Source: Olsenella sp. An293 | GTDB lineage: Bacteria > Actinomycetota > Coriobacteriia > Coriobacteriales > Atopobiaceae | DNA length: 64,000 bases | Direction of reading: 5' to 3' | Assembly: GCF_002159495.1 (NCBI RefSeq) | Contig: NZ_NFIT01000003.1 | Location: forward strand, 124,001-188,000 | In this document: positions 18,258-58,888 of the stretch, in pieces | How positions within the stretch are numbered: the stretch's first letter is position 1 | How the letters are laid out: each line of letters opens with the position of its first letter | The notes under the pieces: model-generated | Told to the model about the DNA's origin: nothing | The model's database searches: none | Seen by the model: the letters and a program-made list of their open reading frames with translations, nothing else | Position numbers and translations under genes: made by a program

Positions 18258-19568
18258 ATGGCAAAAGGAGACGGAAGCATTACGGAGGTAAAGAAGCCCG
18301 ACGGAACCAGCTACGCCCCCAAGCATTGGAAAGTCCGCATCGACCTCGGTACGAATCCTATCACCGGCAAGCGTGACGTGGTCTCGAGAAACATCAAGGG
18401 CACCAAGTCCGATGCCTGCAAGCTGCGCGACCAGCTCAAGGCAGATCTCGAGTGCGGCCTCTCGGCCAACGCCGACAAGATGACCTTCGCCGAGTTCGCG
18501 GAGCAGTGGCAGCAGGCTCGAGAGACTGCGGCAGAGATCAGCAAGACGCGCCTTCGCCGGGAGCGCACCATCGTCGAGGACATGTGCTCCTACATCGGCG
18601 GCATCAAGCTCCGCGACATCACCGCCCAGACCATCGAAGGGCTCTACATGAAGATGCGCTGGGACAAGACGGAGGAGAAGGGCAAGTGCAGCGGCACCAC
18701 CATGAACATGATCCACAAGCTGCTCAAGCAGATCCTCTCCCGTGCCGTAGACTACGACCTCATCCTGCGCAACCCCGCCGAGAAGGTCAAGGCACCGCGC
18801 TGCGACACGCCGGACCGTCGCTCCCTCACCACCGCCGAGGCGCGGCGGCTGCTCGCAACCATCGATGAGGCGGAAAACGAGGCCTATGCGTCCCGTGACG
18901 CCATCGAGGAACGGCAGGAGAAGCGCGGTGACACCTCGGAGCGGAGCTACCTGCGAGGCCTGTCCAGCATCGGCAACGTCATGGCCGCACGCATCGGCCT
19001 CGCAACCGGTATGCGACGCGGAGAGGTCCTGGGCCTCACGTGGGGCCATATCAGCTTCGCACGGGGAACCATCCGCGTCACCCAGTCGGTCACGACCTAC
19101 GGTGAGGTGAAGGAGCCCAAGACCGAGGCGGGGAAGCGCGTCATCGCCGTGGACGAGAAGACCATCGAGCACCTGAGGCGGTGGAAGCAGTTCCAGCGAG
19201 AAGAGCTCGCCATTCTGTCGCTCGAACAGACGAGGGACACACCCGTCTGCTGCAACGACAAAGGCGGCCTCATCGCCCCGACGAACTTCTCGCGCTGGTG
19301 GCGGTCCTTCACGAAGGCCCACGGTTTCGAGGGCCTGAAGTTCCATGAGCTCAGGCACACCCAGGCAACGCAGCTCGTCGCCGGCGGCATGGACATGAAG
19401 ACCGTCCAGCACCGGCTCGGCCACGCCTCGGCAACCCTGACGATGAACCTCTACGCCCACGCGCTACCCGAGAACGACGCCCAGGCGGCTCAGCTCATCG
19501 GCAGCCTGTTCTCCGAAACGCCGAGCGAGCAGGCAAGGCAGGAAGGAGCTCTCAGGGTCGCGGTCTAA
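18258..19568 (+). CDS. Tyrosine-recombinase integrase
   Basis: A 436-residue phage-type integrase with an N-terminal AP2-like arm-binding domain (about 1-65), a SAM-like core-binding domain (about 75-175) and a catalytic domain. The tetrad is visible: Arg253 in ATGMRRGEV, His363 and Arg366 in HELRHTQ, His389 in LGHAS and Tyr399 in LYAHA. I chose ATG 18258 because AAGGAGG lies at 18243-18249; the GTG at 18249 would overlap that site. It points at three tRNA genes starting 125 nt downstream, the usual attachment target for this family. It should catalyse integration and, with the excisionase, excision of the island. Confidence 0.95.
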   Translation: MAKGDGSITEVKKPDGTSYAPKHWKVRIDLGTNPITGKRDVVSRNIKGTKSDACKLRDQLKADLECGLSANADKMTFAEFAEQWQQARETAAEISKTRLRRERTIVEDMCSYIGGIKLRDITAQTIEGLYMKMRWDKTEEKGKCSGTTMNMIHKLLKQILSRAVDYDLILRNPAEKVKAPRCDTPDRRSLTTAEARRLLATIDEAENEAYASRDAIEERQEKRGDTSERSYLRGLSSIGNVMAARIGLATGMRRGEVLGLTWGHISFARGTIRVTQSVTTYGEVKEPKTEAGKRVIAVDEKTIEHLRRWKQFQREELAILSLEQTRDTPVCCNDKGGLIAPTNFSRWWRSFTKAHGFEGLKFHELRHTQATQLVAGGMDMKTVQHRLGHASATLTMNLYAHALPENDAQAAQLIGSLFSETPSEQARQEGALRVAV

Positions 19569-38186: not shown

Positions 38187-40117
<1,931 letters not shown>

Positions 40118-40133: not shown

Positions 40134-41036
40134 ATGGGCTCCAAGCGGACCCTCGTCACCGGCTGCTACGGCCAGCTCGGGCGCGCGGTGCGCGCGCTCG
40201 CCGAGCGGCGCGGCGTCGCCGGGGAGTTTGACTTCTGCGACATCGACACCTTTGACATGGGCGACCCGGCGGCCTACGGCCAGTTTGACTGGGACGCCTA
40301 TGGCACGGTCATCAACTGCGGCGCGTTCACGGCGGTCGACGCCGCGGAGACGCCCGAGGGCCGCGTGAGCTGCTGGCGGGCCAACGCCTCCGGCCCGAGC
40401 CTGCTCGCCCGCACCTGCGCCGCTCACGGCGCCACGCTCGTGCACGTGTCCTCCGACTACGTCTTCGACGGCACGCGCGCGCTGCACGACGAGAAGGAGC
40501 CCCTCTCGCCCATCTCCGTCTACGGCCAGTCCAAGGCGGCGGGCGACCTCGCCGTCATGGGGTGCCCCCGCCACTACATCCTGCGCAGCTCCTGGGTCAT
40601 CGGCGACGGAAAGAACTTCGTGCGCACCATGTGGGGCCTCTCCGACCGCGTGGCCGCGGGCGAGCTCGCGCAGGTGACCGTCGTGGACGACCAGGAGGGG
40701 CGCCTCACCTTCACCGACCAGATGGCCGCCGCGATCTTCCACCTGCTGGACGCCGGCGCGCCCTTTGGGCTCTACGACATGACGGGTTCGGGCGCCGTGC
40801 GCACCTGGGCCGACATCGCCCGCGCCACCTTTGAGGCGGCCAACGGCAACGGCGACAAGGTCGTCCCCGTGACCACGGCCGCCTACTACGCGAGCGCCAA
40901 GGGCCCGGTCGCCCCGCGCCCGGAGCACTCCGCGCTCGACCTCTCCAAGCTCGAGGCCACGGGCTTCTCGCCGCGCGACTGGGAGGACGAGCTCGCCGAG
41001 TACCTGGCCTCGCTTCGCGCCGAGCTGCGCGGCTAG
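40134..41036 (+). CDS. rfbD: dTDP-4-dehydrorhamnose reductase
   Basis: A 300-residue RmlD, last step of dTDP-rhamnose synthesis. The NADPH site is TGCYGQLGRAV at the start, HVSSDYVFDG and the catalytic YGQSKAAGD follow, and LRSSWVIGDGKNFV is typical. Only the reductase domain is present; in several actinobacteria this gene is fused to the RmlC epimerase, which is missing here and elsewhere in the window. It follows rfbB by 16 nt and converges with the ATP-grasp gene, overlapping its stop by 4 nt. Confidence 0.93.
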   Translation: MGSKRTLVTGCYGQLGRAVRALAERRGVAGEFDFCDIDTFDMGDPAAYGQFDWDAYGTVINCGAFTAVDAAETPEGRVSCWRANASGPSLLARTCAAHGATLVHVSSDYVFDGTRALHDEKEPLSPISVYGQSKAAGDLAVMGCPRHYILRSSWVIGDGKNFVRTMWGLSDRVAAGELAQVTVVDDQEGRLTFTDQMAAAIFHLLDAGAPFGLYDMTGSGAVRTWADIARATFEAANGNGDKVVPVTTAAYYASAKGPVAPRPEHSALDLSKLEATGFSPRDWEDELAEYLASLRAELRG

Positions 41037-42298: not shown

Positions 42299-43759
42299 GT
42301 GCGCGCGGAGGAGCTCAAGGCGACGACGATTCGCTCCTTCCTCTGGAAGCTCTTCGAGCAGGGGGGCGCCTCCGTGGTCACCCTGCTCGTTCAGGTCGTC
42401 ATGGCGCGCCTGCTCGCGCCGACGGAGTTTGGCGTGCTCGCCATCATGCTCGTCTTTGTCAACGTGGGCAACGTCATCGTGACGAGCGGCCTCAACACCG
42501 CGATCATCCAGGCGCCCGATGCGAGCGACGACGACTTCTCAACGGTCTTCTGGATGAGCCTCGCCGTCTCGCTCGCGCTCTACGCGGCGCTGTTTGTCGC
42601 GGCGCCGGCGATCGCGGCGTTCTACGCGATCCCGCAGGCGGTGGCGCCGCTCCGGGTGCTGCTGCTCGTGCTCGTGGTCAACGCCTACAACGCGATCCAG
42701 GAGGCCATCGTCGCCCGCAGCCTCGACTTCCGCAAGACGTTTCGCGCCACGGTGAGCGCGGGCGTCTCCTCGGGCGTCGTCGGCGTCGCCGTGGCGCTCG
42801 CCGGGGGCGGGATCTGGGCGCTCGTGGCCCAGCAGCTCTCGCAGCAGCTCGTCAAGTGCCTCGTGCTGGCCGCGCAGGTCCCCTGGAAGCCGCGGGCGGT
42901 CTTTCGGCCCGAGCGCGCGGCGCGCTTCTTCCGCTTTGGGTGGAAGCTGCTCGCCTCCGGCATGCTCGAGCAGGGCTACCAGGGCCTCTCGGACCTGCTC
43001 ATCGGCAAGGTCTTCTCGACCTCCGAGCTCGGCTACGTGAGCCAGGGCAAGCGCTACCCCAACGCCCTGGGGGCGCTGCTCGACGGCGCGATCCAGCCGG
43101 TCATGCTCTCCGCGGCGGCGCGCGTCCAGGACGACCGCGACATGGTCAAGCGCCTCGCGCGGCGCGCCCTCAAGACGAGCACCTTCTTCGTGGCGCCGGG
43201 CATGCTCGCCTTCGCGGTGGTCGCCGAGCCCCTCGTGCGCCTGCTGCTCGGCGAGGCGTGGCTGCCGTGCGTGCCGTTTCTGCAGATGTACTGCATCGTC
43301 TACGCCCTGCTGCCCATACAGTCCACCAACCTGCAGGTGCTCAACGGCATGGGGCGCAGCGACCTGTTCCTCAGGCTCGAGGTCATAAAGAAGCTCCTCG
43401 GCATCTGCATCCTCGCGTTCACGACCTTCGTCCTGCGCGACCTCACCGCCATCGTGGCCGGCTACATCGTCACCGCCGTGCTCAGCACTTTCGTGAACGC
43501 ATCCCCCAACCGCCGCGTCATCGGCTACGCCTACCTCGAGCAGGTGCGCGACATCTGTCCGGCGTTTCTGCTCTCGGCCCTCGCCGCAGCGATCGCCTGG
43601 CCGCTCTCCCTCACGGGCCTGCCCGATGCGGCGCTCGTCGTCTGCCAGGTCGTCGTCATGGTCGTCGCGTACCTCGGCGTGGCGGCGCTGCTGCGCGTGG
43701 AGGAGCTCGGCTACCTCGTGCGCACGGCGCGCGGCGTGCTCGGCACGAGGGGCAAATGA
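42299..43759 (+). CDS. Wzx-like polysaccharide flippase
   Basis: A 486-residue membrane protein with about 12-14 helices, of the MOP superfamily branch that includes WzxC and TuaB. The start WKLFEQGGASVVTLLVQVVMARLLAPTEFG and the FQ.. GYQGLSDLLIGKVFS block are typical. The GTG at 42299 is preceded by AGAGGGGGCGAG. It should flip undecaprenyl-diphosphate-linked repeat units to the outer face. Genes for the polymerase (Wzy) are not obvious, unless one of the large membrane proteins near the end of the window does this job. Confidence 0.88.
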   Translation: MRAEELKATTIRSFLWKLFEQGGASVVTLLVQVVMARLLAPTEFGVLAIMLVFVNVGNVIVTSGLNTAIIQAPDASDDDFSTVFWMSLAVSLALYAALFVAAPAIAAFYAIPQAVAPLRVLLLVLVVNAYNAIQEAIVARSLDFRKTFRATVSAGVSSGVVGVAVALAGGGIWALVAQQLSQQLVKCLVLAAQVPWKPRAVFRPERAARFFRFGWKLLASGMLEQGYQGLSDLLIGKVFSTSELGYVSQGKRYPNALGALLDGAIQPVMLSAAARVQDDRDMVKRLARRALKTSTFFVAPGMLAFAVVAEPLVRLLLGEAWLPCVPFLQMYCIVYALLPIQSTNLQVLNGMGRSDLFLRLEVIKKLLGICILAFTTFVLRDLTAIVAGYIVTAVLSTFVNASPNRRVIGYAYLEQVRDICPAFLLSALAAAIAWPLSLTGLPDAALVVCQVVVMVVAYLGVAALLRVEELGYLVRTARGVLGTRGK

Positions 43760-43814: not shown

Positions 43815-44930
43815 ATGCACCACGCGACGCCCATCCTCGTCACCCGCTCGTCAATGCCGCCCCTCGAGGAGTACGAGGCGGAGATCGCCTCCCTCTGGGA
43901 GTCCCACTGGCTCACCAACATGGGCGAGAAGCACCACCAACTCGAGCAGGACCTGCGGTCGTTTCTCGGCGTGGACCACATCGCCCTGTTCGTGAACGGG
44001 CACAGCGCGCTCGAGTGCGTCATCGAGGCGATGGGACTCTCGGGCAAGGTCATCACCACTCCCTACAGCTTTGCCTCCACGACCCACGCCATCGTCCGGA
44101 AGGGCCTCACGCCCGTCTTCGCCGACATCAAGCCGGACGACTACACGCTCGACCCCGCGTGCGTCGAGCGCCTCGTCGACGACGAGACCTGCGCCATCAT
44201 GCCGGTCCACGTCTACGGCAACCTCTGCGACGTCGACGCGCTCGCAGAGATCGCGCGCCGCCACGGCCTCAAGGTCATCTACGACGCGGCCCACGCCTTC
44301 GCGGTCGAGCGCGACGGGATCTCCGCGGCCGCGTTCGGCGACGCCTCGATGTTCTCGTTCCACGCCACGAAGGTCTTCAACACCGTCGAGGGCGGCGCCG
44401 TGTGCTTCTCGGACCCCGCCCTGGCCCCCTTGCTCGAGCAGTGGAAGAACTTCGGCATCACGGGCACCGAGTCGGTCGAGTACGTGGGCGGCAACGCCAA
44501 GATGAACGAGTTCTGCGCCGCCATGGGCATCTGCAACCTGCGCCATGTCCGCGAGGAGATCGAGAAGCGCCGGCACGTGGCCGAGCGCTACTGGGAGCGC
44601 CTGGAGGGCGTTCCCGGCGTCCGTCTCAGCCTGCCCCAGCCGGGCGTCACCCCCAACTACGCCTACCTGCCGGTCGTCTTTGAGGAGGGTGAGTTCGGCG
44701 CCACGCGCGACGAGGTCTACGAGGCCCTCATGGCCCTCGACATCCACCCGCGCAAGTACTTCTACCCGCTCATCAGCGACTACGCGTGCTACGAGGGCCG
44801 CTTCGACTCCGCGCTCACGCCCGTCGCCCGTCACGTGGCCGACCGCGTGCTCACGCTGCCCATGTACGCCGACCTCTCGCTCGAGGACGTGGACTGGGTC
44901 TGCGACGTCGTCCTCGGCGCGCGGCGCTAG
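43815..44930 (+). CDS. DegT/DnrJ/EryC1-family sugar aminotransferase
   Basis: A 371-residue PLP enzyme. The cofactor lysine is Lys186 in FHATKVFNTVEGGAVCF, and IYDAAHAFAVERDG and NGHSALECVIEAMG are further family blocks. These enzymes put an amino group on a keto-sugar nucleotide, so the glycan probably contains an amino-deoxy sugar. It begins 55 nt after the flippase and is followed by a glycosyltransferase 13 nt later. The partner dehydratase that would supply a 4-keto sugar could be rfbB. Confidence 0.92.
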   Translation: MHHATPILVTRSSMPPLEEYEAEIASLWESHWLTNMGEKHHQLEQDLRSFLGVDHIALFVNGHSALECVIEAMGLSGKVITTPYSFASTTHAIVRKGLTPVFADIKPDDYTLDPACVERLVDDETCAIMPVHVYGNLCDVDALAEIARRHGLKVIYDAAHAFAVERDGISAAAFGDASMFSFHATKVFNTVEGGAVCFSDPALAPLLEQWKNFGITGTESVEYVGGNAKMNEFCAAMGICNLRHVREEIEKRRHVAERYWERLEGVPGVRLSLPQPGVTPNYAYLPVVFEEGEFGATRDEVYEALMALDIHPRKYFYPLISDYACYEGRFDSALTPVARHVADRVLTLPMYADLSLEDVDWVCDVVLGARR

Positions 44931-49155: not shown

Positions 49156-51249
49156 TCAGCGCAGGATGCGGTAGAGGGAGAGGTTGCCGTCCATCCGGGC
49201 CACGAGCTCGAAGCCCTCGGTGTCCTCCGTGATCGAGGAGATGCCGTCGTAGTCGTAGGGGTTGTAGTCCCCGCGCAGGTCCACGAAGCCGAGCTCCTCC
49301 TCGTCGACGCGCAGCACGAGCACGTAGCGCGCGTCGACGGCATCCACGGCCTCGCGGACGCGCTCGTCGGTGGCGTACTCGTCGAGGCGCAGGCGGATGA
49401 TCTTGCTCTCGAGCGTCTCGGTGCCGTTGTTCAGGCCCACGAAGTTGCGGTAGTAGACCCTGAGCCCGTTGGTCCCGTAGGTGAGAAAGCTCCCGTCCAT
49501 GGGGTCGTTGACGATCAGGGCGCCGTCCTCGACGAGCTCGGCGACCTGTCCGGCGAACGCGTGCTCGCCCTGGTCGAGGGGGGCGCCGTACGAGAAGACC
49601 TGCCCGGCGAGGATGCGGTAGTCGCCGAAGGTGGTGTGGGTCGTCTTTCGCCAGTCGCGCCGCTCGATGCCCTCGTTCTCCTCGAGCTCCTCCTCGGTGT
49701 AGTCGCGGTGGGTGCCGGCGACGTTGAACTCGGGCATGAAGTTGACCACGAGGAAGAGGGCGGCGATCGCGCAGGCCACGAGCGGGGCGTTGACCGCGCG
49801 GCCGCGCGACGCGTTGTAGGCGCCCACGACCCGCAGGCACACGTCGTAGACCCAGGCCATGCCGAGCGAGGCGAGCGGGACGGCGGCGATCGCGCAGTTG
49901 GCGGCGAGCCGCATCGGGTCGGTGTACCAGAAGCCCGCGAGCAGCTGCTTGTACTCGTCCTCGTGGGTGGCGGCGATGAGCAGGATGTAGCAGGCGATGA
50001 GGTAGGAGGCCACGAGCCAGCGGCGCCCGGGGGTGAGCGCCGCGCAGACGAGGCCAAAGATCACGAGCAGGGCGAGCACGGGCTGGATGGCCATCTCGGC
50101 GTGGAAGCCAAAGGTGTAGGAGAGCGTGAGTATGTTGACGATCTCCTGCCACGCCCAGGCGAAGGGCTCCCAGATGTGGGTGACCGTGCCCTGCATGAAG
50201 GGGAGGTGGTAGCACCCCACCCAGACCGCCACCACGAGCGCGGCGAAGCCCGCCGACGCGCCGAGCTTGGCGACAATGCCCAGCGAGCGCGCGCCGCAGG
50301 CGTCGCAGATGCGGTGGATTGCGTAGGGGCTCAGCAAGACGACGCAGGTGAACAGGACGTTGGGGTGGCACAGCGCCAGGCCCGCCGAGCAGACGAGCAG
50401 TGTCGCGAGCGTGCGGACGCGCTCCGAGACGCCGCCCTTCTCGCCGAGCAGGTGCACGAAGAGGGCCATCGCGATGGGCACGAGCGAGAAGCCCGCGAGG
50501 TTGGGGTAGACCGGCCCAAAGATGATGAGGCTCCAGGGAAACGCCACGAAGGCGAGGCTCGTGAGCGCGCCGCAGACCCTGACCGCCCGCCGCTCGGGGA
50601 ACAGGAGGGCGAGAAGCGCGAGCATGCCGAGCGGGTAGACGAGGCACGGCAGGACGAGCATCGAGGCGTTGATCGTCACGGTGGCGTGCGCGCCGGTCAG
50701 CATCATGGCGACGGCGCACAGGGCGTGCCAGCCGGAGGGGTAGAACCCGCTGAGGTCGACCGGGGCGATCGCGGCGTCGGCGGGGTCGAGGTAGGCGTTC
50801 GTGCCCAGGGAGGTGAGGCGGCCCGAGTCGGCCATCGACCGGATGAGGTCGAGGTGCTGCGTGAGGTCGTAGGCCTGGAACAGCGTGTCGGGCGTCCCGA
50901 GCCTCGAGACGTAGAGGTTGTAGCCTAGGGCGACGCCGAGCGCGACGTAGACGAGGGGTAGCCACGGCTCGATGCGGGGCAGCGAGAGCTCGCGCGCGCC
51001 GCGGGCCCGTGTGATCGCCAGCGCCGCGCCGGGCACGGCGACGAGGGGGACGAGCAGCGTCAGCGCCGAGGACGTGACGCCCGCGAGGTCGAGCGCCTGG
51101 CCGAGCAGGGCGACGAGGGAGAGGCTGACGAGGGGGGAGCAGCACACCGACCACACGCGGCCCATGCCGAGGGCGCGCAGCGCGAGGTAGCCGGGGACGA
51201 GCAGCAGCGCGCAGAGCGCGAGCGAGACGACGAGAAACTCAAGCCACAT
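49156..51249 (-). CDS. DUF6541-type polytopic membrane protein
   Basis: A 697-residue membrane protein with about 12-14 helices in the first 500 residues and a soluble C-terminal domain. After the start MWLEFLVVSLALCALLLVPG comes a long loop with TLFQAYDLTQHLDLIRSMAD and SGFYPSGWHALCA, the pattern of DUF6541 proteins, which behave like GT-C glycosyltransferases. A soluble part (LAGQVFSYGAPLDQGEHAFA, later IVNDPMDGSFLTYGTNG) lies on the cell surface. It is grouped with the polyprenyl-phosphate sugar synthase and DUF2304, so it is a likely user of their product. Confidence 0.82.
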   Translation of the reverse strand: MWLEFLVVSLALCALLLVPGYLALRALGMGRVWSVCCSPLVSLSLVALLGQALDLAGVTSSALTLLVPLVAVPGAALAITRARGARELSLPRIEPWLPLVYVALGVALGYNLYVSRLGTPDTLFQAYDLTQHLDLIRSMADSGRLTSLGTNAYLDPADAAIAPVDLSGFYPSGWHALCAVAMMLTGAHATVTINASMLVLPCLVYPLGMLALLALLFPERRAVRVCGALTSLAFVAFPWSLIIFGPVYPNLAGFSLVPIAMALFVHLLGEKGGVSERVRTLATLLVCSAGLALCHPNVLFTCVVLLSPYAIHRICDACGARSLGIVAKLGASAGFAALVVAVWVGCYHLPFMQGTVTHIWEPFAWAWQEIVNILTLSYTFGFHAEMAIQPVLALLVIFGLVCAALTPGRRWLVASYLIACYILLIAATHEDEYKQLLAGFWYTDPMRLAANCAIAAVPLASLGMAWVYDVCLRVVGAYNASRGRAVNAPLVACAIAALFLVVNFMPEFNVAGTHRDYTEEELEENEGIERRDWRKTTHTTFGDYRILAGQVFSYGAPLDQGEHAFAGQVAELVEDGALIVNDPMDGSFLTYGTNGLRVYYRNFVGLNNGTETLESKIIRLRLDEYATDERVREAVDAVDARYVLVLRVDEEELGFVDLRGDYNPYDYDGISSITEDTEGFELVARMDGNLSLYRILR

Positions 51250-51388
51250 GGCGGGGACGCCCCTTGGGATCGAGCGCCGTCGGGGGAATTGTTTCCGCCG
51301 GCGGTTGATTGCGGACACATACGTCTGTGACGGTATCATAATAGGAGCGTTTAGCCCGTGGACATCACCTCCGACGAACAGGAGCCCC

Positions 51389-52870
51389 ATGAGGACAAGC
51401 CAGCCCATCTCGCCCCGCCTCTCCCGCCCGCTCGCCGCGCTCGGCGTCGCGGCGCTTCTCGCCCTGGCACCGGCGCCCGCGCTCGCCGTCGAGCCCGCGT
51501 CCGACCCCGCCCCCATCACGGTGATGGCAAACGGGGCCTCCGGCTGGGTCCGCGGCGAGGACGGCGCGTGGCGCTTCAGCCTCGCGGACGGCACGGTCGT
51601 GCGCGGCTGGCTCGTGACCGACGTGCTCCCCGGCGAGAGCGCCTCGACCGGCCTGCAGCGCTACTGGCTCAAGGCCGACGGCTCCCTGGCCACCGGCGAG
51701 CTCATCCAGACCGGCGCCTCCTCGTGGACCTACGCGCGCCCGGAGGGCTACGTCGTCCGCGGCAAGTGGACCGACCCCGCCACGGGCAACGTCTACCTCT
51801 CCGACAACGACGGCAACCTCGCGAGCGCCGGCTGGGTCGTCTCGGACGCCTACGGCGACGGCCTGCAGCGCTACTGGGTCGACGAGGTCGCCCACGCCTG
51901 CGTGCCGGGCATCTCGAGCGCCGGCTGGGCCCACTACACCTCCGCCGCGGGCTACGTCCTGCGCGGCAGCCTTGAGACCGAGCACGGGACCCTGATCGCC
52001 GACAACGACGGCCGCCTGCTCGAGGACCGCGTCGCCGCCGTGGACGGCGAGGGCTGGTACGTCGGCGACCTCGGCGCCGGCCTGCAGCGCTACAACTTCA
52101 ACGCGGTGGACGGCCACCTCTACGCGAGGACCGGCGTCTTCACCGCCACGATCGGCGGCGTCGAGGCGCGCTTCTACGCCAGCCCCGAGAACGGCTACGT
52201 GGTCCGCGGCGCCACCGCCGCGAGCCCGCTCTACCTCGAGGGCGCCTACTGGTCCTCCGACAACGAGGGGCGCCTGACCCAGGTCAGCGTCGCCCCCGAC
52301 GACACGCCGCGCTCGCGCGACCCGTGGCTCGCCACGGTCACCTGGGGCGACGACGCCTCCTACATCTCGACCCTCGCGGCCGCCGCGGCGCGCATCGGCA
52401 GCGACACCGACTACTTCATCAGCTTTGACAACGAGCTCTGCCGCGTGATCGTGTTCGAGCGCACGGCGAGCGGCACCTGGCAGGCGACCAAGCTGTGGAA
52501 CTGCCACGGCGCGAAGAACACCTACAGCGCCGCGAACAAGCACATCTACGGCTGGGGCGGCGTCTACAAGATCTCCGACCACCAGATCTGCGCCTGGGAC
52601 GACAGCTACTTCGGGCGCGGCTACAACGACTGGGCGTCGTGCTTCATCGAGTACTACGAGAAGTCCAACGTCACCGGTCACTCCCGCTACATCCCGGGCA
52701 AGGGCTGGGAGAACTGCGCCTCGTTCCACTCGTCCGCCTATGCCTACACCGGCAACACCATGACCGGGTGCTGCGGCCTGCTCTATGAGAACGCCAAGTG
52801 GGTGCACGACGTCGTGCCCCTCGGCACCACGGTCATCGAGTTCGAGTACAGCGACGGCACCTACTTCTAG
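51389..52870 (+). CDS. Secreted wall-binding-repeat protein with degraded YkuD domain
   Basis: A 493-residue secreted protein. A signal peptide (LAALGVAALLALAPAPALA) is followed by about five aromatic repeats of the GWVVSDAYGDGLQRYW / SDNDGNLASAG type, which bind the cell wall or its polymers. The C-terminal 150 residues align with the YkuD L,D-transpeptidase domain of the next protein. At the active site the SHGCIRL motif there is replaced by MTGCCGLL here: one Cys is kept, but the His and the Arg are lost. Downstream ENAKWVHDV is shared with ENAKWIYDN-like sequence. It starts 140 nt from a divergent DUF6541 gene, with CAGGAG before the ATG. A pseudo-enzyme or altered specificity is likely. 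Confidence 0.75.
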   Translation: MRTSQPISPRLSRPLAALGVAALLALAPAPALAVEPASDPAPITVMANGASGWVRGEDGAWRFSLADGTVVRGWLVTDVLPGESASTGLQRYWLKADGSLATGELIQTGASSWTYARPEGYVVRGKWTDPATGNVYLSDNDGNLASAGWVVSDAYGDGLQRYWVDEVAHACVPGISSAGWAHYTSAAGYVLRGSLETEHGTLIADNDGRLLEDRVAAVDGEGWYVGDLGAGLQRYNFNAVDGHLYARTGVFTATIGGVEARFYASPENGYVVRGATAASPLYLEGAYWSSDNEGRLTQVSVAPDDTPRSRDPWLATVTWGDDASYISTLAAAAARIGSDTDYFISFDNELCRVIVFERTASGTWQATKLWNCHGAKNTYSAANKHIYGWGGVYKISDHQICAWDDSYFGRGYNDWASCFIEYYEKSNVTGHSRYIPGKGWENCASFHSSAYAYTGNTMTGCCGLLYENAKWVHDVVPLGTTVIEFEYSDGTYF

Positions 52871-52905
52871 GCCGCCTGCAACCAGGTTTTGAGGAGGAGA
52901 AGAAC

Positions 52906-55515
52906 GTGAATCATCTGAGAAGCAGCCGTCCCGCGGTCGTCGCGGGGCTGGTCGCGACTCTTGGGCTCACGGCGACGCTCGCCGTGGCCCCGGTGACGGC
53001 CGCGGCCGACGAGCTGCCCGCCGCTGTGGAGGGCATCGGGGCCGAGGCCCCGGCGCCCGTCGAGCAGACGGCCGATCAGGCGGGCGCCCTGCCCGCCGGG
53101 CGGTCGGACGACGAGGCGCAGCTGCTCGCCGACGACCCCGGCCAGCCCGCCCAGCCGGCGGACGACGCCATCGTCATCGGCGCCTACGACGAGGGCGCGG
53201 GCAAGCCCGCGAGCGGCGGGCAGGCCCCGACGGCAGATGAGGGCGCTCCCGAGACGCCCGAGACGTCCGCGGTGCCGGAGGCGCCCGCGGACCCCGTCGT
53301 CGACGAGCCCGCGGACGGAGATGCCGCGGCCGACATCCCGACGGCGGAGGAGGGCGAGGCGCAGGTCCCGGGCGGCGAGCAGGCCGCGGGCGAGACGGCG
53401 GACGCCGACGTGACCGAGGACGCCGAGACCGAGGATGCCGCCGACGCCGAGCAGGACGCCGAGCAGGGCGCCGACCCCGAGCTGGACGCCGACGCCGAGG
53501 GCGCCGACGCCGAGCAGGTCGCCGAGGAGGGGCCGATCGAGCCCGCCGCCTCGGAGGACGAGCGGGACGACTCCGTCGCGGTCGAGGCCTCCCAGGCCAA
53601 CTCCTGGGTCAAGGACGAGAGCGGCGCCTACCGCTGGTACGACGCGGCCGGCAACCTCTCGCAGGGCGGCTGGGTCGTCACCGACAAGAACCTCGACAAC
53701 GTCTCGGGTGAGCTGCAGCGCTACTGGATCGAGGCGGACACCGGCGCGCTCGCCTTCTCCAAGCTCCTGACCATCATCGAGAACGGCGTCACCTACTGGT
53801 CCTACGCCACGGCCGACGGCTACGTGGTCCGCGGCAAGCACACCGTGGTCGGCGCGGACGGCAACGTCTACGTCTACCTCGCCGACAACGACGGCCGCCT
53901 CGCCGGCACCGGCTGGGTCGTCTCGGACGCCTACGGCGACGGCCTGCAGCGCTACTGGGTCGACGAGGAGGCCCACGCTGCCGTTGTCGGCTACTCCTCG
54001 GACGGCTGGGACCACTACACCACCGAGAAGGGCTACGTCGCCCGCGGAAAGGTCGCCGCGACCGAGGGGGACCGCCAGCTCGTCTACCTCGCCGACAACG
54101 ACGGCCGCCTCGCCGAGGCCGGCTGGGTCGTCTCGGACGCCTACGGCGACGGCCTGCAGCGCTACTGGGTCGACGCCGAGGCGCACGCCGCCGTGGTCGG
54201 GCCCTCGGCGGACGGCTGGGCCCACTTCACGACCCCCGAGGGCTACGTCGCCCGCGGGTTCGTGAGCTACGGGGACCGCATCTACGTCGCGAACAACGAC
54301 GGCCTGCTCGAGGACCGCGAGGGCTGGCTCGTCACCGACGCCTACGGCCACGGCCTGCAGCGCTACTTCTTCGCCCATGACGAGCTCACCGGCTGCTCCT
54401 TCATCCAGACCGGCTTCTTCCAGGCCGACCTTCTGACCGGCGGCGCCGGCGAGCTGTGGTTCTACGGCAACCCCGAGCTCGGCTACGTGGCCCGCGGCAA
54501 GATGGGCACCAAAAACGGCGTCCTGATCGCCGACAACGACGGCGTGCTCGCGGAGTCCTACGTCGACTTCCCGGAGGGGATGTACGTCACCGACCGCTTT
54601 GACGGCCAGCTCAGGCGCTACTACTTCGTGCGCGTGGACGGCCACCTCTTCGCCAAGACAGGCGTGTTCGTCGTGGACGGCGAGCACTACTTTGGCTATG
54701 AGGACGAGGGCTATCTCGCCATCGGCCGCAGCGCCTACGGCCGCGGCATGATCGTCGCCGACAACGACGGCCGCCTGCTCTGGAGCGACGTCGAGGGCTG
54801 GGTCGTCACCGACCGCTTCGACGGCGCGCCCGAGCGCTACTACCTCTGGGACCTCGGCGGAGGCGTGATGGGCGCGCGGCTGGGCCTGTTCAAGGTCGGC
54901 GCCAACCAGTACTACGGCCGCGAGGACACCGGCTACGTCGTGCGCGGCACCTACACCGCCCCGGGCGGCCAGACCTTCTACGCCGACAACGACGGCAAGC
55001 TCTCCTACACCTTCCTCACCAGCGCCGGCTGGAGCGCCTTGGAGCGCATCAAGGGCCTCTACAGCTGGACCCAGTACCTCATCGCCGTCGACGTCACGAA
55101 CCACCGCACGGTGGTCTTCCAGGGAGGCTACATCCAGTCCAAGGGCTGCTACGGCAACTGGACTCCGCTCTATGACTGGGGCTGCGGGACCGGCAGGCTG
55201 TACTACCACGACGGCGAGGGCACCCCGCGCGGCACCTACACCATCGGCGGCGGAGGCGCAGACTACAACTGGATGCCGGGCGGCTACGTCCCGGGCGGGT
55301 ACCGCACCACCTACTGGGTGAAGAACGACGTGAAGTACTTCACCGGCTTCTTCCTCAACCTGGGCTTCCACTCGACCGTGGGCATCGAGGGCGGCTACAG
55401 CGACTCAAGCCAGCTGGGCGTCAACATCTCCCACGGCTGCATCCGCCTGCTCGAGAAGAACGCCAAGTGGATCTACGACAACGCCCTCCCGGGCACCAAG
55501 GTCGTCGTCTACTAG
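52906..55515 (+). CDS. L,D-transpeptidase (YkuD) with wall-binding repeats
   Basis: An 869-residue secreted wall enzyme. The signal peptide (VVAGLVATLGLTATLAVAPVTAAA) is followed by an acidic Ala/Asp/Glu/Pro-rich linker of about 200 residues. About nine repeats of the form GWVVSDAYGDGLQRYWVD plus a Tyr/Phe-VARGK block plus ADNDGRLA follow. The C-terminal YkuD domain has HSTVGIEGG and the catalytic SHGCIRLLEKNAKW with His, Cys and Arg intact (Cys about residue 846). YkuD enzymes make L,D (3-3) peptidoglycan crosslinks or attach proteins to peptidoglycan. The GTG start has GAGGAGGAG upstream. It lies 35 nt after its paralogue, as a duplicated pair. Confidence 0.92.
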   Translation: MNHLRSSRPAVVAGLVATLGLTATLAVAPVTAAADELPAAVEGIGAEAPAPVEQTADQAGALPAGRSDDEAQLLADDPGQPAQPADDAIVIGAYDEGAGKPASGGQAPTADEGAPETPETSAVPEAPADPVVDEPADGDAAADIPTAEEGEAQVPGGEQAAGETADADVTEDAETEDAADAEQDAEQGADPELDADAEGADAEQVAEEGPIEPAASEDERDDSVAVEASQANSWVKDESGAYRWYDAAGNLSQGGWVVTDKNLDNVSGELQRYWIEADTGALAFSKLLTIIENGVTYWSYATADGYVVRGKHTVVGADGNVYVYLADNDGRLAGTGWVVSDAYGDGLQRYWVDEEAHAAVVGYSSDGWDHYTTEKGYVARGKVAATEGDRQLVYLADNDGRLAEAGWVVSDAYGDGLQRYWVDAEAHAAVVGPSADGWAHFTTPEGYVARGFVSYGDRIYVANNDGLLEDREGWLVTDAYGHGLQRYFFAHDELTGCSFIQTGFFQADLLTGGAGELWFYGNPELGYVARGKMGTKNGVLIADNDGVLAESYVDFPEGMYVTDRFDGQLRRYYFVRVDGHLFAKTGVFVVDGEHYFGYEDEGYLAIGRSAYGRGMIVADNDGRLLWSDVEGWVVTDRFDGAPERYYLWDLGGGVMGARLGLFKVGANQYYGREDTGYVVRGTYTAPGGQTFYADNDGKLSYTFLTSAGWSALERIKGLYSWTQYLIAVDVTNHRTVVFQGGYIQSKGCYGNWTPLYDWGCGTGRLYYHDGEGTPRGTYTIGGGGADYNWMPGGYVPGGYRTTYWVKNDVKYFTGFFLNLGFHSTVGIEGGYSDSSQLGVNISHGCIRLLEKNAKWIYDNALPGTKVVVY

Positions 55516-55553: not shown

Positions 55554-55582
55554 GCCACGGCGGGGCGTATCCCCGCCGTGGC
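55554..55582. terminator. Strong 12-bp stem-loop before the ACP gene
   Basis: GCCACGGCGGGG and CCCCGCCGTGGC form a perfect 12-bp stem with a 5-nt loop, 38 nt after the transpeptidase stop. The following bases are not a clean T run, so it may be a terminator for the upstream gene or a leader hairpin of the ACP operon. A TAAGAT -10-like box lies just before it at about 55546. Confidence 0.6.
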
Positions 55583-55609: not shown

Positions 55610-55843
55610 ATGAAGCTTGAGAAGCTGGTCGCGGACACCCTCGCCATTCCCGTCGAGCGGGTGAGCGACTCCCTTTCCATCGACGACTGCGACGAGTGGA
55701 CCTCGATGAGGCAGGTCGCGCTCATCTCCGCCCTCGAGAGCGCCTACGCCACCGAGTTCGACATCATGGAGTCCATCGAGATGGACTCGGTCGGCGCCAT
55801 CCGCGAGGTGCTCGAGGCCAAGGGCGTCGAGCTCGATGGCTAG
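55610..55843 (+). CDS. Acyl carrier protein
   Basis: A 77-residue acidic four-helix ACP. The phosphopantetheine serine is probably Ser32 in DEWTSMRQVALIS, where the usual DSL is changed to TSM. The acidic helix II/III pattern (ESAYATEFDIMESIEMDSV) is kept. It is a dedicated ACP, not the fatty-acid one, to judge from its place: it overlaps the AMP ligase by 8 nt. Similar ACP-ligase pairs charge an acid and hand it to an acyltransferase (as in D-alanylation or glycan acylation). GAGGAG precedes the ATG at 55610. Confidence 0.85.
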   Translation: MKLEKLVADTLAIPVERVSDSLSIDDCDEWTSMRQVALISALESAYATEFDIMESIEMDSVGAIREVLEAKGVELDG

Positions 55844-57320
55844 GGTGCTGCCCGGCACCTCCGTCGCCGCCTGCGTCGCCCGCCGCGCCGAGGAGCGTCC
55901 CGGCGCCGCGGCGCTCGTCGTGGGGGGCGAGGAGGTCTCCTACGGGCGCCTCTGGGCCGCCGCGACGTCCTTCTCGGCGCTTCTTGCTTCCAAGGGGGTG
56001 GGGCGCGGGGACCGCGTGCTGCTCCACGCCCGCCACAGCCTACCCTACGTGGCCGCCTACCTGGGCGCCACGCGCCTCGGAGCCGTGGCCGTCCCCTACG
56101 AGGAGGGCCTTCCCGAGGCCTCGGTCCGCGAGCTCGCCGAGCGCGTCGGCGCCGCCGCTGCCCTGAGCCCCTCGCCGGTCCCCGGCGTCGCGGCGTGGCT
56201 TTCCGAGGACGAGGCGCCCGCCGAGCCGGACGCCCCCTGGGAGGGCCTGCCGCCCGAGGCGTCAGAGCTCGCCGAGCTGCTGCTCACGACGGGCACGACC
56301 GGGCGCTCGAAGGTCGTCGAGCTCTCGCACGGGGCGGTCATGTCCGTGATCGAGAACATCGTCGAGGCGACGGGCATCGAGGACGACAACGTCTCGCTCG
56401 TGCCCATGCCCCTGAACCACGTCTTTGCCCTCCGCCGCCTCCAGACGGGGCTCGTCATGGGGGCCACCGTCGTGCTGCTGAACGGCGTGGCCTCGCTCAA
56501 GCGCGTCTTCGGGGCTCTCTCGGGCAACCGGGTGACGTCGCTCAGCCTCGTTCCCTCGGCGCTCGCCTACATCCAGCGGGCGACCAAGGACTACCTCGGG
56601 ACCTTCGACGGCCAGATCCGCTTCGTCGAGTCGAGCTCGGCGCCGCTTCCCGCCGCCACGCGCCAGTGGCTGCGCACGGTCCTGCCGAGCGCGCGCCTGT
56701 ACAACTCCTACGGCTGCACCGAGTCCACGGCCTGCTGCATGCTCGAGTACAGCCACCGCGCCGACGACGGCGCCTGCGTGGGCGCCCCCTGCGCCACGGC
56801 GAGGATCGAGATCGTCGACCCCCGCAGCGGCGAGCCGCTCGCCGAGGGCGCAGGGCGCATCGTCATCGGCGGCTCCGCCGTGATGAGCGGCTACTGGGGC
56901 GACGAGGAGGCGACGGCCGCCACGCTGCGCGACGGGCGCGTCTTCACCAACGACCTGGGCTATCTGCGCGACGGCGAGCTCTACGTGCGCGGCCGCATCG
57001 ACGACGTCGCCATCATCGGAGGCCACAACGTCTCGCCCGTGGAGGTCGAGGAGGCCATCGGCGCCTGCCCGCTCGTGGCGGAGTGCGCCTGCGTGAAGGG
57101 CTCCGACCCCATCACCGGAGACAGCCTCGCGCTCTTCGTCGTGTGGGGGGAGAGAAAAGACGACGAGGCCCTCGCCGCCTTCATGCGCGAGCGCCTCGAG
57201 CCGTTCAAGGTCCCCTCCGTGGTGCGCACGGTCGACGCCATCCCGCGAACCTACAACGGCAAGGTCGACCGCAAGCCGCTCGTGGCGGCGCTTGCGGGAG
57301 AGGGCGAGGTGGGCGCATGA
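55836..57320 (+). CDS. AMP-forming acyl-CoA/ACP ligase
   Basis: A 494-residue adenylate-forming enzyme. Core motifs are LLLTTGTTGRSKVVELSH (P-loop A3), YNSYGCTESTAC (A5), NDLGYLRDGELYVRGRIDD (A7/A8) and the C-terminal lysine motif PRTYNGKVDRK (A10). It activates a carboxylic acid with ATP and loads it onto a thiol, most likely the ACP whose gene overlaps its start. It overlaps the NeuD-like gene by 4 nt at the other end. The acid is not evident; candidates are a short fatty, hydroxy or amino acid. Confidence 0.9.
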   Translation: MARVLPGTSVAACVARRAEERPGAAALVVGGEEVSYGRLWAAATSFSALLASKGVGRGDRVLLHARHSLPYVAAYLGATRLGAVAVPYEEGLPEASVRELAERVGAAAALSPSPVPGVAAWLSEDEAPAEPDAPWEGLPPEASELAELLLTTGTTGRSKVVELSHGAVMSVIENIVEATGIEDDNVSLVPMPLNHVFALRRLQTGLVMGATVVLLNGVASLKRVFGALSGNRVTSLSLVPSALAYIQRATKDYLGTFDGQIRFVESSSAPLPAATRQWLRTVLPSARLYNSYGCTESTACCMLEYSHRADDGACVGAPCATARIEIVDPRSGEPLAEGAGRIVIGGSAVMSGYWGDEEATAATLRDGRVFTNDLGYLRDGELYVRGRIDDVAIIGGHNVSPVEVEEAIGACPLVAECACVKGSDPITGDSLALFVVWGERKDDEALAAFMRERLEPFKVPSVVRTVDAIPRTYNGKVDRKPLVAALAGEGEVGA

Positions 57321-57976
57321 TCTTGGCCATCTACGGCACGGGCGGCACGGGTCGCGAGGTCCACGAGATCGTCCGCGACGTCGACCCCTCCGGCGAGCGC
57401 TGGGAGGAGGTCGTCTTCGTCGACGACGTGACCGACGCCCGCGAGCTGTACGGCTCGCGCGTCATGCCCTTCTCGCGCCTCGCCTCCGAGCTTTCCCCCG
57501 AGCGGGTCGAGTTCGTCGTCGCGGTGGGCGAGCCCACCTCGCGCGAGCTGCTCTTTGACCGCGTCACCGAGGCGGGCTACGGGCTCGCCACCATCGTCCA
57601 CCCCACCGCGCACGTCTCACCGAGCGCCCGGCTGGGCGCCGGCGTCTTCGTCAAGATGCAGAGCATCGTCTCGGCCGAGGCCGTCCTCGAGGACAACGTC
57701 TTCGTCCAGGCGGACGTCATCGTCGGCCACGATGTCCACGTGGGCCGCCACACCCAGATCTCTGCGTTCTCGCACATCGCCGGCAACGCGAGCCTGGGGC
57801 AGCGGTGCTACCTGGGCGTGCGGGCATCCGTGCGCGAGGAGTGCCGGATGGGGGACGACGTCGTGTGCGCGATGGGCGCCGTCGTGATGGAGAAGCGCGT
57901 CCCCTCGCGCGTCCTCGCCATGGGAAACCCCGCTCGCTACGTGCGGCGCAAGGCGGGGAGCAAGGTGTTTGGCTAG
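57317..57976 (+). CDS. NeuD-like left-handed beta-helix acyltransferase
   Basis: A 219-residue protein of the NeuD/PglD family: an N-terminal Rossmann-like domain (AIYGTGGTGREVHEIVRDVD) followed by hexapeptide repeats that form a left-handed beta-helix (IVHPTAHVSPSARLGAG through AMGNPARYVRRK). The catalytic His candidate is HDVHVG in the repeats. Family members O- or N-acylate sugar nucleotides using an acyl-thioester. Lying inside an operon with an ACP and a ligase, it may use an acyl-ACP rather than acetyl-CoA. It starts in an ATGA overlap with the ligase. Confidence 0.9.
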   Translation: MILAIYGTGGTGREVHEIVRDVDPSGERWEEVVFVDDVTDARELYGSRVMPFSRLASELSPERVEFVVAVGEPTSRELLFDRVTEAGYGLATIVHPTAHVSPSARLGAGVFVKMQSIVSAEAVLEDNVFVQADVIVGHDVHVGRHTQISAFSHIAGNASLGQRCYLGVRASVREECRMGDDVVCAMGAVVMEKRVPSRVLAMGNPARYVRRKAGSKVFG

Positions 57977-57985
57977 GAGGTTGCC

Positions 57986-58888
57986 ATGAAGCGGGTTCTC
58001 ATCGTGGGCGCCGGGAACGTGGGGTCGGCGGCTGCGCACACGATCGCCCTGAGGGGCCTGGCCGACGAGGTCGTCCTCTTCGACCGCCGCGCCGCCCGGG
58101 CCGACGCCGAGGCCCGCGACCTCATGTGCGCGCTTCCCAGGATGGGGGCGCGCGCCGTGGTGCGCGCCGGCTCGCCCGAGGAGTGCGCGGGCGCCGAGGC
58201 GCTCGTCGTCTGCGCGTCCGCGCCGGCCCGCCTGGGCCAATCGAGAAACGACATGCTCGTCAAGAACGCCCAGATCGTGCGCGACACGGTGTCCGCCGCC
58301 GAGGCCGCGGGCTTCTCGGGGCTCTACCTCATCGTGAGCAACCCCGTCGACCTGCTCGCCCACCTGGTCGTCGACGAGCTGGGAGTTTCCTGCGAGCGCG
58401 TCGCGGGTACCGGCACCCTGCTCGACTCGCTGCGCCTCGAGGACCTCATTCGCGCGCGGCTCGGCGCCGCCGAGGCGTGCGCGCTCGCCCTCGGGGAGCA
58501 CGGCGAGGGCCTCACGGTCGACTGGGGCCGCACGCTCGCGGACGGCGCCGAGGTCCCCGAAGCCGAGCGCCCCGGGCTCGTCCGCGCCACCGTCGACGAG
58601 GCCTACGAGATCATGAAGGGCAAGGGCAGCACGAGCTACGGCATCGCGCTCGCGGTCGCGACCGTCCTCGAGGCGCGCGAGCGCCGCGACGGGAGGGTCC
58701 TGCCGCTCTCCGTGGCGGCTCGGGGCGCCTACGGCATCGACGACATGACCCTGGCGCTGCCGGTCTCCTTTGGTCCGGACGGGGCCCCCGTCGTCCGCGA
58801 GCTCGAGCTCGACGCGGCGTCGGTCGGGCGGCTCCGGGAGGTCGCCCGTGCCATGCGGGAGGCCTACGAGGCCGGCAGGCAGGGCTGA
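57986..58888 (+). CDS. Lactate dehydrogenase-family 2-hydroxyacid dehydrogenase
   Basis: A 300-residue NAD-dependent enzyme of the L-LDH/MDH family. The nucleotide site GAGNVGSAAAHTIALRG is near the start, VSNPVDLLAHL follows, GEHGEG holds the catalytic His, DSLRL the substrate-binding Arg and KGSTSYGI the active-site Thr. In the specificity loop (SAPARLGQSRND) the position that is Gln in LDH and Arg in MDH appears to be Ala, so the substrate may be a bulkier 2-oxo or 2-hydroxy acid. It lies 9 nt after the acyltransferase gene in a glycan operon, an unusual place for central metabolism. Confidence 0.87.
   Translation: MKRVLIVGAGNVGSAAAHTIALRGLADEVVLFDRRAARADAEARDLMCALPRMGARAVVRAGSPEECAGAEALVVCASAPARLGQSRNDMLVKNAQIVRDTVSAAEAAGFSGLYLIVSNPVDLLAHLVVDELGVSCERVAGTGTLLDSLRLEDLIRARLGAAEACALALGEHGEGLTVDWGRTLADGAEVPEAERPGLVRATVDEAYEIMKGKGSTSYGIALAVATVLEARERRDGRVLPLSVAARGAYGIDDMTLALPVSFGPDGAPVVRELELDAASVGRLREVARAMREAYEAGRQG

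What the first reader, a model, noticed from the sequence alone, without database searches (positions are those of the whole stretch)
55610..58888. ACP, AMP ligase, NeuD-like transferase and LDH-family enzyme in one operon: a possible hydroxyacyl decoration system
The four genes overlap or lie within 10 nt of each other and run into two membrane glycosyltransferase-like genes. A dehydrogenase that makes a 2-hydroxy acid, a ligase that activates it, an ACP that carries it and a beta-helix transferase that puts it on a sugar form a complete logical path. I know of D-alanyl and fatty-acyl versions of ligase-ACP decoration, but not this four-gene form with an LDH-family member. The acyl group could be lactate or a larger hydroxy acid.
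Basis: inference. Interest (0 to 1): 0.66.

Follow-up and report, generated by a model that had tools for sequence, protein, structure and literature searches.

The report
Hydroxyacid tagging of a surface sugar
Four neighbouring genes in a gut-type bacterium look like a small assembly line that makes a hydroxy acid, loads it on a carrier protein and attaches it to an amino sugar of the cell surface; the logic is known from the cholera O1 antigen, but the dehydrogenase here is an unusual relative of lactate dehydrogenase.

Summary
ACP, AMP ligase, NeuD-type transferase and an LDH-family enzyme lie at 55610-58888, overlapping or 9 nt apart. The same four genes, in the same order, occur in two other species of the genus (Thermophilibacter mediterraneus, Olsenella sp. 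An285); full-length orthologs were found nowhere else in the genomes sampled. In all three the cassette lies 11-14 kb from the DegT aminotransferase of an rmlA-rmlB-DegT set, so the likely acceptor is a dTDP-4-amino-4,6-dideoxy sugar. The dehydrogenase keeps the 2-oxoacid catalytic residues, but its specificity residue is Ala in 3 of 3, neither Gln (LDH) nor Arg (MDH); it forms its own clade and was found only with the cassette. Best reading: a 2-oxo acid is reduced to a 2-hydroxy acid, loaded on the ACP and N-acylated onto the amino sugar. The acid is unknown; one larger than lactate is favoured. The scheme resembles V. cholerae O1 perosamine, whose 2-hydroxy acid is activated by RfbL, putatively on carrier RfbK. 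It is a new variant of a known kind. The membrane genes downstream were not found beside the cassette in either relative. No activity was tested.

The parts
55610..55843 (+). acyl carrier protein, 77 aa, carrier serine Ser32 in DEWTSM
   Evidence: PF00550 19.0 bits, cut-off 20.8; Ser32 invariant in 3 orthologs and aligned with the Ser of two other PF00550 proteins
55836..57320 (+). AMP-forming ligase, 494 aa, proposed to load a 2-hydroxy acid on the ACP
   Evidence: PF00501 205 bits and PF13193 58 bits; orthologs 71-76% identical
57317..57976 (+). NeuD/PglD-type sugar N-acyltransferase, 219 aa
   Evidence: TIGR03570 over cut-off; His138 invariant in the orthologs and in two distant relatives
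57986..58888 (+). LDH/MDH-superfamily 2-hydroxyacid dehydrogenase, 300 aa, Ala81 at specificity position 102
   Evidence: PF00056 and PF02866; catalytic residues kept, Ala at position 102 in 3 of 3; own clade
43815..44930 (+). DegT/DesI-like sugar 4-aminotransferase, proposed maker of the acceptor
   Evidence: PF01041 299 bits; best NCBIfam match PLP_DesI 285.7 bits, under its cut-off of 650; nearest solved structure 2po3; 78-88% identical partner near the cassette in both relatives
38187..39095 (+). RmlA, glucose-1-phosphate thymidylyltransferase
   Evidence: TIGR01207 467 bits, over cut-off
39098..40117 (+). RmlB-like dTDP-glucose 4,6-dehydratase
   Evidence: PF16363 260 bits; 94-98% identical in both relatives; the exact name rests on recall and its place between RmlA and RmlD
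40134..41036 (+). RmlD-like reductase of the same dTDP-sugar set
   Evidence: TIGR01214 183 bits, under the 224 cut-off
42299..43759 (+). Wzx-type flippase of the glycan locus
   Evidence: NF058658 O-glycosylation flippase 243.9 bits, under its cut-off of 720

Best explanation
The four genes are a cytoplasmic N-acylation cassette. Step 1 (inferred from family and residues): the LDH-family enzyme reduces a 2-oxo acid to a 2-hydroxy acid, probably the (S) form, with NAD(P)H. Step 2 (inferred from family): the ligase adenylates this acid and loads it on the phosphopantetheine of the ACP. Step 3 (inferred from family and locus): the NeuD-type transferase moves the 2-hydroxyacyl group to the 4-amino group of a dTDP-4-amino-4,6-dideoxyhexose, probably the glucose form (viosamine), made by RmlA, RmlB and the DegT/DesI-like aminotransferase of the same locus. 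The acylated sugar is then built into a surface glycan. Shown: gene identity, order, conservation, co-distribution, residues and the nearby sugar genes. Not shown: any activity, the acid, the sugar, the final polymer. An acid with a larger or non-polar side chain (such as 2-hydroxyisovalerate or 2-hydroxyisocaproate) is favoured over lactate.
For: Same four genes in the same order in three species. Full-length orthologs of the three enzymes were found in the same three genomes only: dehydrogenase 3 of 396 class genomes at 574-606 bits, next best 218.7; ligase 3 of 396 at 997-1023 bits, next 342.5; NeuD 3 of 140 family genomes at 469-471 bits, next 203. DegT partner in 3 of 3 cassette genomes, 10.7, 14.1 and 12.3 kb away, with rmlA, rmlB, rmlD and wzx. 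Solved relatives of NeuD include a pilin glycosylation protein (4m98), perosamine N-acetyltransferase, UDP-N-acetylbacillosamine N-acetyltransferase and VioB. In G062, another genus of the family, NeuD and a DegT enzyme are neighbours behind an ACP-ligase pair. Dehydrogenase residues aligned with R109, D168, R171, H195 are all kept; R171 binds a free carboxylate (recall), which fits action before the ligase. dN 0.26-0.30 against dS 0.66-0.80 for the dehydrogenase: purifying selection.
Against: The DegT aminotransferase occurs in 32 further family genomes that lack the cassette (35 of 140 in all), so it does not need it. Its 3-of-3 co-occurrence has a nominal chance of 0.015 (family) or 0.019 (genus), which ignores shared ancestry. 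It is 11-14 kb away, not in the operon. The whole case rests on three genomes of one genus. Olsenella sp. An285 also has a WecE-type aminotransferase two genes after the cassette, another possible acceptor source. NeuD relatives are annotated as acetyltransferases; use of an acyl-ACP is not shown. The ACP scores just below the Pfam cut-off. The dehydrogenase is the least conserved of the four.
Confidence: 0.62

Rival explanations
1. The acid carried is plain lactate: the dehydrogenase is simply a diverged L-lactate dehydrogenase and the sugar is N-lactoylated.
For: LDH family; best NCBIfam match is L-LDH, 196.2 bits; best solved relatives are L-lactate dehydrogenases; the eLife 2014 paper says that position 102 is Gly in Cryptosporidium LDHs and Leu in trichomonad LDHs, so Gln is not essential (passages).
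Against: L-LDH equivalog cut-off (303.55) not met; Ala at position 102 in 3 of 3; own clade on a long stem.
Confidence: 0.17
2. The dehydrogenase is a passenger or serves another step. The ligase, ACP and NeuD transfer an acid it does not make (for example a fatty or dicarboxylic acid), while it works on a side step.
For: It is the least conserved of the four (63-68% against 71-81%) and has the highest pN/pS (0.46-0.50); in T. mediterraneus it is separated from NeuD by 89 nt.
Against: Not found without the cassette in 31 genus genomes or 396 class genomes; catalytic residues intact in 3 of 3.
Confidence: 0.12
3. The acyl group goes to a polymer or a lipid-linked intermediate (O-acylation or teichoic-acid-like decoration as in Dlt) rather than to a nucleotide amino sugar.
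For: One of the two nearest other ligases, at 35% identity, is in an ACP-MBOAT-ligase set (G262, L140). The three membrane proteins after the cassette in this genome have no family match, so a new kind of membrane acyltransferase is not excluded.
Against: No MBOAT match among the twelve genes from ACP to MEM3; a soluble NeuD-type transferase is in the cassette; the membrane proteins are not beside it in the relatives.
Confidence: 0.07
4. The cassette makes a small secreted metabolite unrelated to the surface glycan.
For: Ligase plus carrier protein is also a natural-product motif (recall).
Against: It lies near sugar-nucleotide, flippase and glycosyltransferase genes in all three genomes.
Confidence: 0.02

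Closest known systems
Vibrio cholerae O1 tetronate system (RfbL/WbeL ligase, RfbK carrier and neighbours)
   Same: [quoted passage not shown] the acid ends on the amino group of a 4-amino-4,6-dideoxy sugar, perosamine (passages of PMC12208996, and PMC3441752).
   Different: There the acid is thought to be made by other reductases (recall of Morona 1995, seen only in reference lists). Here an LDH-family enzyme stands in the operon, the sugar is likely dTDP-linked, and the host is an actinobacterium. Sequences were not compared.
Dlt D-alanylation (DltA ligase, DltC carrier, DltB MBOAT)
   Same: Ligase and carrier protein activate a small acid for surface decoration (recall).
   Different: No MBOAT match among twelve genes; the ligase aligns a PLxH stretch with an acyl/aryl ligase, not the amino-acid motif (recall); a soluble NeuD-type transferase and a dehydrogenase are in the set.
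PglD / PerB / NeuD sugar N-acetyltransferases
   Same: Family and conserved His.
   Different: Those use acetyl-CoA (recall); here an acyl-ACP donor is proposed.
L-2-hydroxyisocaproate dehydrogenases (HicDH clade of the LDH superfamily)
   Same: Catalytic residues kept with neither Gln nor Arg at position 102.
   Different: No insertion between 102 and 109; separate clade from the insert-bearing paralogs of the same bacterial family, which I only suppose to be HicDH-like.
G062 cluster (L127): ACP, ligase, LuxE, LuxC, transketolase halves, SDR, NeuD, DegT
   Same: ACP-ligase-NeuD beside a DegT aminotransferase in the same bacterial family.
   Different: The acid seems to be built by LuxC, transketolase and SDR enzymes instead of an LDH-family enzyme; its ligase is only 26% identical.

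Membership tests
LDH/MDH superfamily | both Pfam domains over cut-off, and R109, D168, R171, H195 | tested here: met
   PF00056 96 bits, PF02866 48.4 bits; R87, D147, R150, H172 invariant in 3 of 3
canonical L-lactate dehydrogenase | Gln at position 102 and NCBIfam equivalog cut-off | tested here: not met
   Ala in 3 of 3; 196.2 bits against 303.55
malate dehydrogenase | Arg at position 102 | tested here: not met
   Ala in 3 of 3, while the genus paralog has Arg in 9 of 9 rows read
HicDH clade | neither Gln nor Arg at 102, with an insertion before R109 | tested here: inconclusive
   first half met, insertion absent; no characterised HicDH sequence was in the tree
NeuD/PglD/VioB sugar acetyltransferases (TIGR03570) | score over the curated cut-off | tested here: met
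   163.8 against 160.8 bits
acyl carrier proteins | PF00550 over cut-off and carrier serine | tested here: inconclusive
   19.0 against 20.8 bits; Ser32 invariant
Dlt-type decoration | MBOAT membrane acyltransferase beside ligase and carrier | tested here: not met
   none among twelve genes scanned; three membrane proteins there have no match to any family
V. cholerae O1 tetronate-type N-acylation | AMP ligase, carrier protein and a sugar 4-aminotransferase in one glycan locus | tested here: met
   the feature itself is my summary of the passages and recall
V. cholerae O1 tetronate-type N-acylation | same acid-making enzymes and sequence relation to RfbK-O | not tested
   RfbK-O sequences were not fetched; the cassette itself holds an LDH-family enzyme
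V. cholerae O1 tetronate-type N-acylation | amide-linked 2-hydroxy acid in the surface polymer | not testable with these tools
   needs chemistry of the glycan

The most novel reading that the evidence does not exclude
A dedicated subfamily of the LDH superfamily, found only inside a surface-glycan cassette, supplies a branched or otherwise larger 2-hydroxy acid that a carrier protein delivers as an amide to a dTDP-4-amino-4,6-dideoxy sugar: a sugar decoration and an LDH-family role that did not appear in the listings of the paper searches made here (open-licence papers only).
Probability: 0.35. Interest if true: 0.6.

Novelty: new variant of a known kind. Interest (0 to 1): 0.45.

Why it matters
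It would give the LDH family a biosynthetic role in surface chemistry, suggest how a compact four-gene unit can vary the coat of gut actinobacteria, and give a soluble, reconstitutable route to sugars carrying 2-hydroxyacyl amides. It also makes the acid question directly testable with three purified enzymes and a carrier protein.

Tried and rejected
Membrane genes as part of the unit: rejected, since none of MEM1, MEM2, the FAD oxidase, GT2a, EPI, TIM and MEM3 was found by tblastn (E 1e-8) in the stretches fetched around the cassette in G089 (46 kb) and G084 (60 kb); GT2b gave only a cross-match at 33% to the conserved upstream GT2 of G089. The rest of those genomes was not searched for them. 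FAD amino-acid-oxidase-like gene as source of the 2-oxo acid: rejected for the same reason. Dlt-type system: rejected (no MBOAT among twelve genes).

Structure prediction of dehydrogenase and ligase gave mean pLDDT 56.3 and 44.6 with three-row alignments; too poor to use, so no fold search was run. The genome-contig scan with the dehydrogenase found nothing although two orthologs are in that collection (L057, L058), so that scan is weak; one search used only two peptide patterns, and its third locus was a 28% identical Streptomyces ligase. The phylum search drew 396 genomes, which did not list the other two cassette genomes, and found only the window's own genome at E 1e-62. Plasmid search with the ligase: no match at E 1e-40. 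Paper searches for an LDH-family member in such a cluster listed none that fits (listings only).

Errors of mine: four rows (L051, L053, L054, L056) were labelled LDH_Q102 although one search shows Arg102; the tree places them with the Arg102 group. In one search the query CBP_LDT2 was translated in a wrong frame, so its rows mean nothing. My gene caller is crude and shows some false or over-long frames.
Full report
What is there. The window lies in contig 23 of a 2.3-Mb genome of the Thermophilibacter/Olsenella group: the two named genomes with orthologs are T. mediterraneus Marseille-P3256 and Olsenella sp. An285 (Thermophilibacter is in Atopobiaceae, Coriobacteriia). The four genes are at the stated coordinates and overlap or are 9 nt apart, with ribosome-binding-site-like stretches before the ACP and the dehydrogenase. 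Family assignments hold: AMP-binding ligase with both domains, NeuD family above its cut-off, LDH-family N and C domains, and a small carrier protein just under the Pfam cut-off. The carrier serine is invariant in the three orthologs and aligns with the serine of two other PF00550 proteins.

Conservation. The cassette occurs with the same gene order in G089 and G084: identities to the window proteins 78-81% ACP, 71-76% ligase, 79-81% NeuD, 63-68% dehydrogenase. dN is below dS for all four genes in all pairs. Counts: the cassette-type dehydrogenase is in 3 of 31 genus genomes and 3 of 396 class genomes, with a gap from 574 to 218.7 bits to the next enzyme. The ligase is in 3 of 140 family genomes at 71% or more, next 42%, and in 3 of 396 class genomes, 997 against 342.5 bits. 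NeuD is in 3 of 140 family genomes, 469 against 203 bits. They are the same three genomes each time. The ACP was looked for only in fetched loci (found in 3 of 3 cassette loci). Beyond the class the tests are weak: one search drew 396 phylum genomes; searches scanned a large collection with few peptide patterns, and one search missed two orthologs known to be in it.

The dehydrogenase. One alignment of 39 LDH-family rows was read: the three cassette enzymes, 9 of the genus paralogs, and the 27 next-best loci (of 190 genomes with a match). The cassette enzymes (3 of 3) have Ala at the position that aligns with residue 102; the genus paralog has Arg (9 of 9 rows), one further family enzyme (L084) has Arg, 16 family paralogs have Met with an inserted residue, and 10 enzymes from the order have Gln. 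The eLife 2014 paper (PMC4109310; passages only) states that Arg102 marks malate and Gln102 canonical lactate dehydrogenases, that the HicDH clade has neither, and that Arg109, Asp168, Arg171 and His195 are the catalytic set; all four have equivalents here. The same paper notes LDHs with Gly or Leu at 102, so Ala does not exclude lactate. In a tree of those rows the three cassette enzymes form a clade (100/100) on a stem drawn at 2.45 changes per column, apart from all other groups (the program warned of long branches and of unusual composition of two of the three rows). I read it as a 2-hydroxyacid dehydrogenase of changed specificity, probably for a larger side chain. This is inference.

The acceptor. 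All three genomes carry, on the same contig, a conserved set GtrA, RmlA, RmlB, RmlD, an ATP-grasp protein, a Wzx flippase and a DegT aminotransferase, the last 10.7-14.1 kb from the ACP gene. The aminotransferase best matches DesI (285.7 bits, under the cut-off of 650), and its nearest solved structure is 2po3 (215.9 bits), which I recall as DesI, the enzyme that makes dTDP-4-amino-4,6-dideoxyglucose. NeuD-type enzymes acylate the amino group of such nucleotide sugars: solved relatives include perosamine N-acetyltransferase, UDP-N-acetylbacillosamine N-acetyltransferase and VioB. A separate example in the same family, G062, has ACP, ligase, LuxE, LuxC, transketolase halves, SDR, NeuD and DegT in a row, with NeuD and DegT neighbours. 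Against: 32 of the 35 family genomes with the DegT enzyme lack the cassette, the co-occurrence has nominal chance 0.015 without correction for kinship, and An285 also has a WecE-type aminotransferase (over its cut-off) two genes behind the cassette. So the sugar could differ, but an amino sugar is well supported.

What does not belong. The genes after the dehydrogenase in the window genome were not found in the fetched stretches beside the cassette in the two relatives, and the membrane proteins MEM1, MEM2 and MEM3 have no Pfam match. I infer that the cassette is a unit that can be gained or lost in a conserved glycan locus; G091 shows much of that locus without it, and transposase genes flank the region in T. 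mediterraneus.

Comparison. In V. [quoted passage not shown] That is the same chemical logic with a 2-hydroxy acid. The difference is the source of the acid: an LDH-family enzyme in the operon here. Of the two nearest other ligases, at 35-36% identity, one is in an ACP-MBOAT-ligase set and one stands without either, so the ligase may descend from a Dlt-like lineage (inference). Paper searches with the terms listed nothing with an LDH-family member in such a cluster; the library holds open-licence papers only, and I saw listings, not the papers.

Verdict. Real, conserved in three species of one genus, and best read as a 2-hydroxyacyl N-acylation cassette for a surface amino sugar; a new variant of a known kind, with the acid and sugar still to be identified.

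Noticed in passing
L127:1146-10262: In G062 (same family) ACP, ligase, LuxE, LuxC, transketolase N and C halves, SDR, NeuD and DegT lie in a row: a second, richer acyl-decoration cluster that may build its acid on the carrier protein.
   Followed up: partly
window 55554-55582: A perfect 12-bp inverted repeat with a 5-nt loop lies 27 nt before the ACP start, without a T run and not called by the terminator scan; possible end of the upstream gene or a leader element.
   Followed up: no
window 51248-55515: Two proteins with choline/glucan-binding-like repeats (by eye); the second has a YkuD L,D-transpeptidase domain, the first no Pfam match. Relatives of the first lie near the cassette in both other genomes.
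   Followed up: partly
L039:11882-14319: In An285 an ATP-grasp protein and a WecE-type aminotransferase follow the cassette; a 61% identical ATP-grasp frame is in G044 (L131).
   Followed up: no
L038:5765-6928 and 18434-18862: An IS110-type transposase and an IS1595-type zinc-ribbon transposase fragment lie on either side of the cassette region in T. mediterraneus, which would fit gain by mobility.
   Followed up: partly
L041:9826-11099 and L042:7958-8890: Partial or frame-split ligase genes of a related type in genus g31 genomes G067 and G074.
   Followed up: no
L006:17599-19899: A protein with a CotH kinase domain and the same kind of repeats follows the glycan genes downstream of the window; a similar CotH-like sequence is in An285 (L039:6906-9209, by eye).
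   Followed up: no
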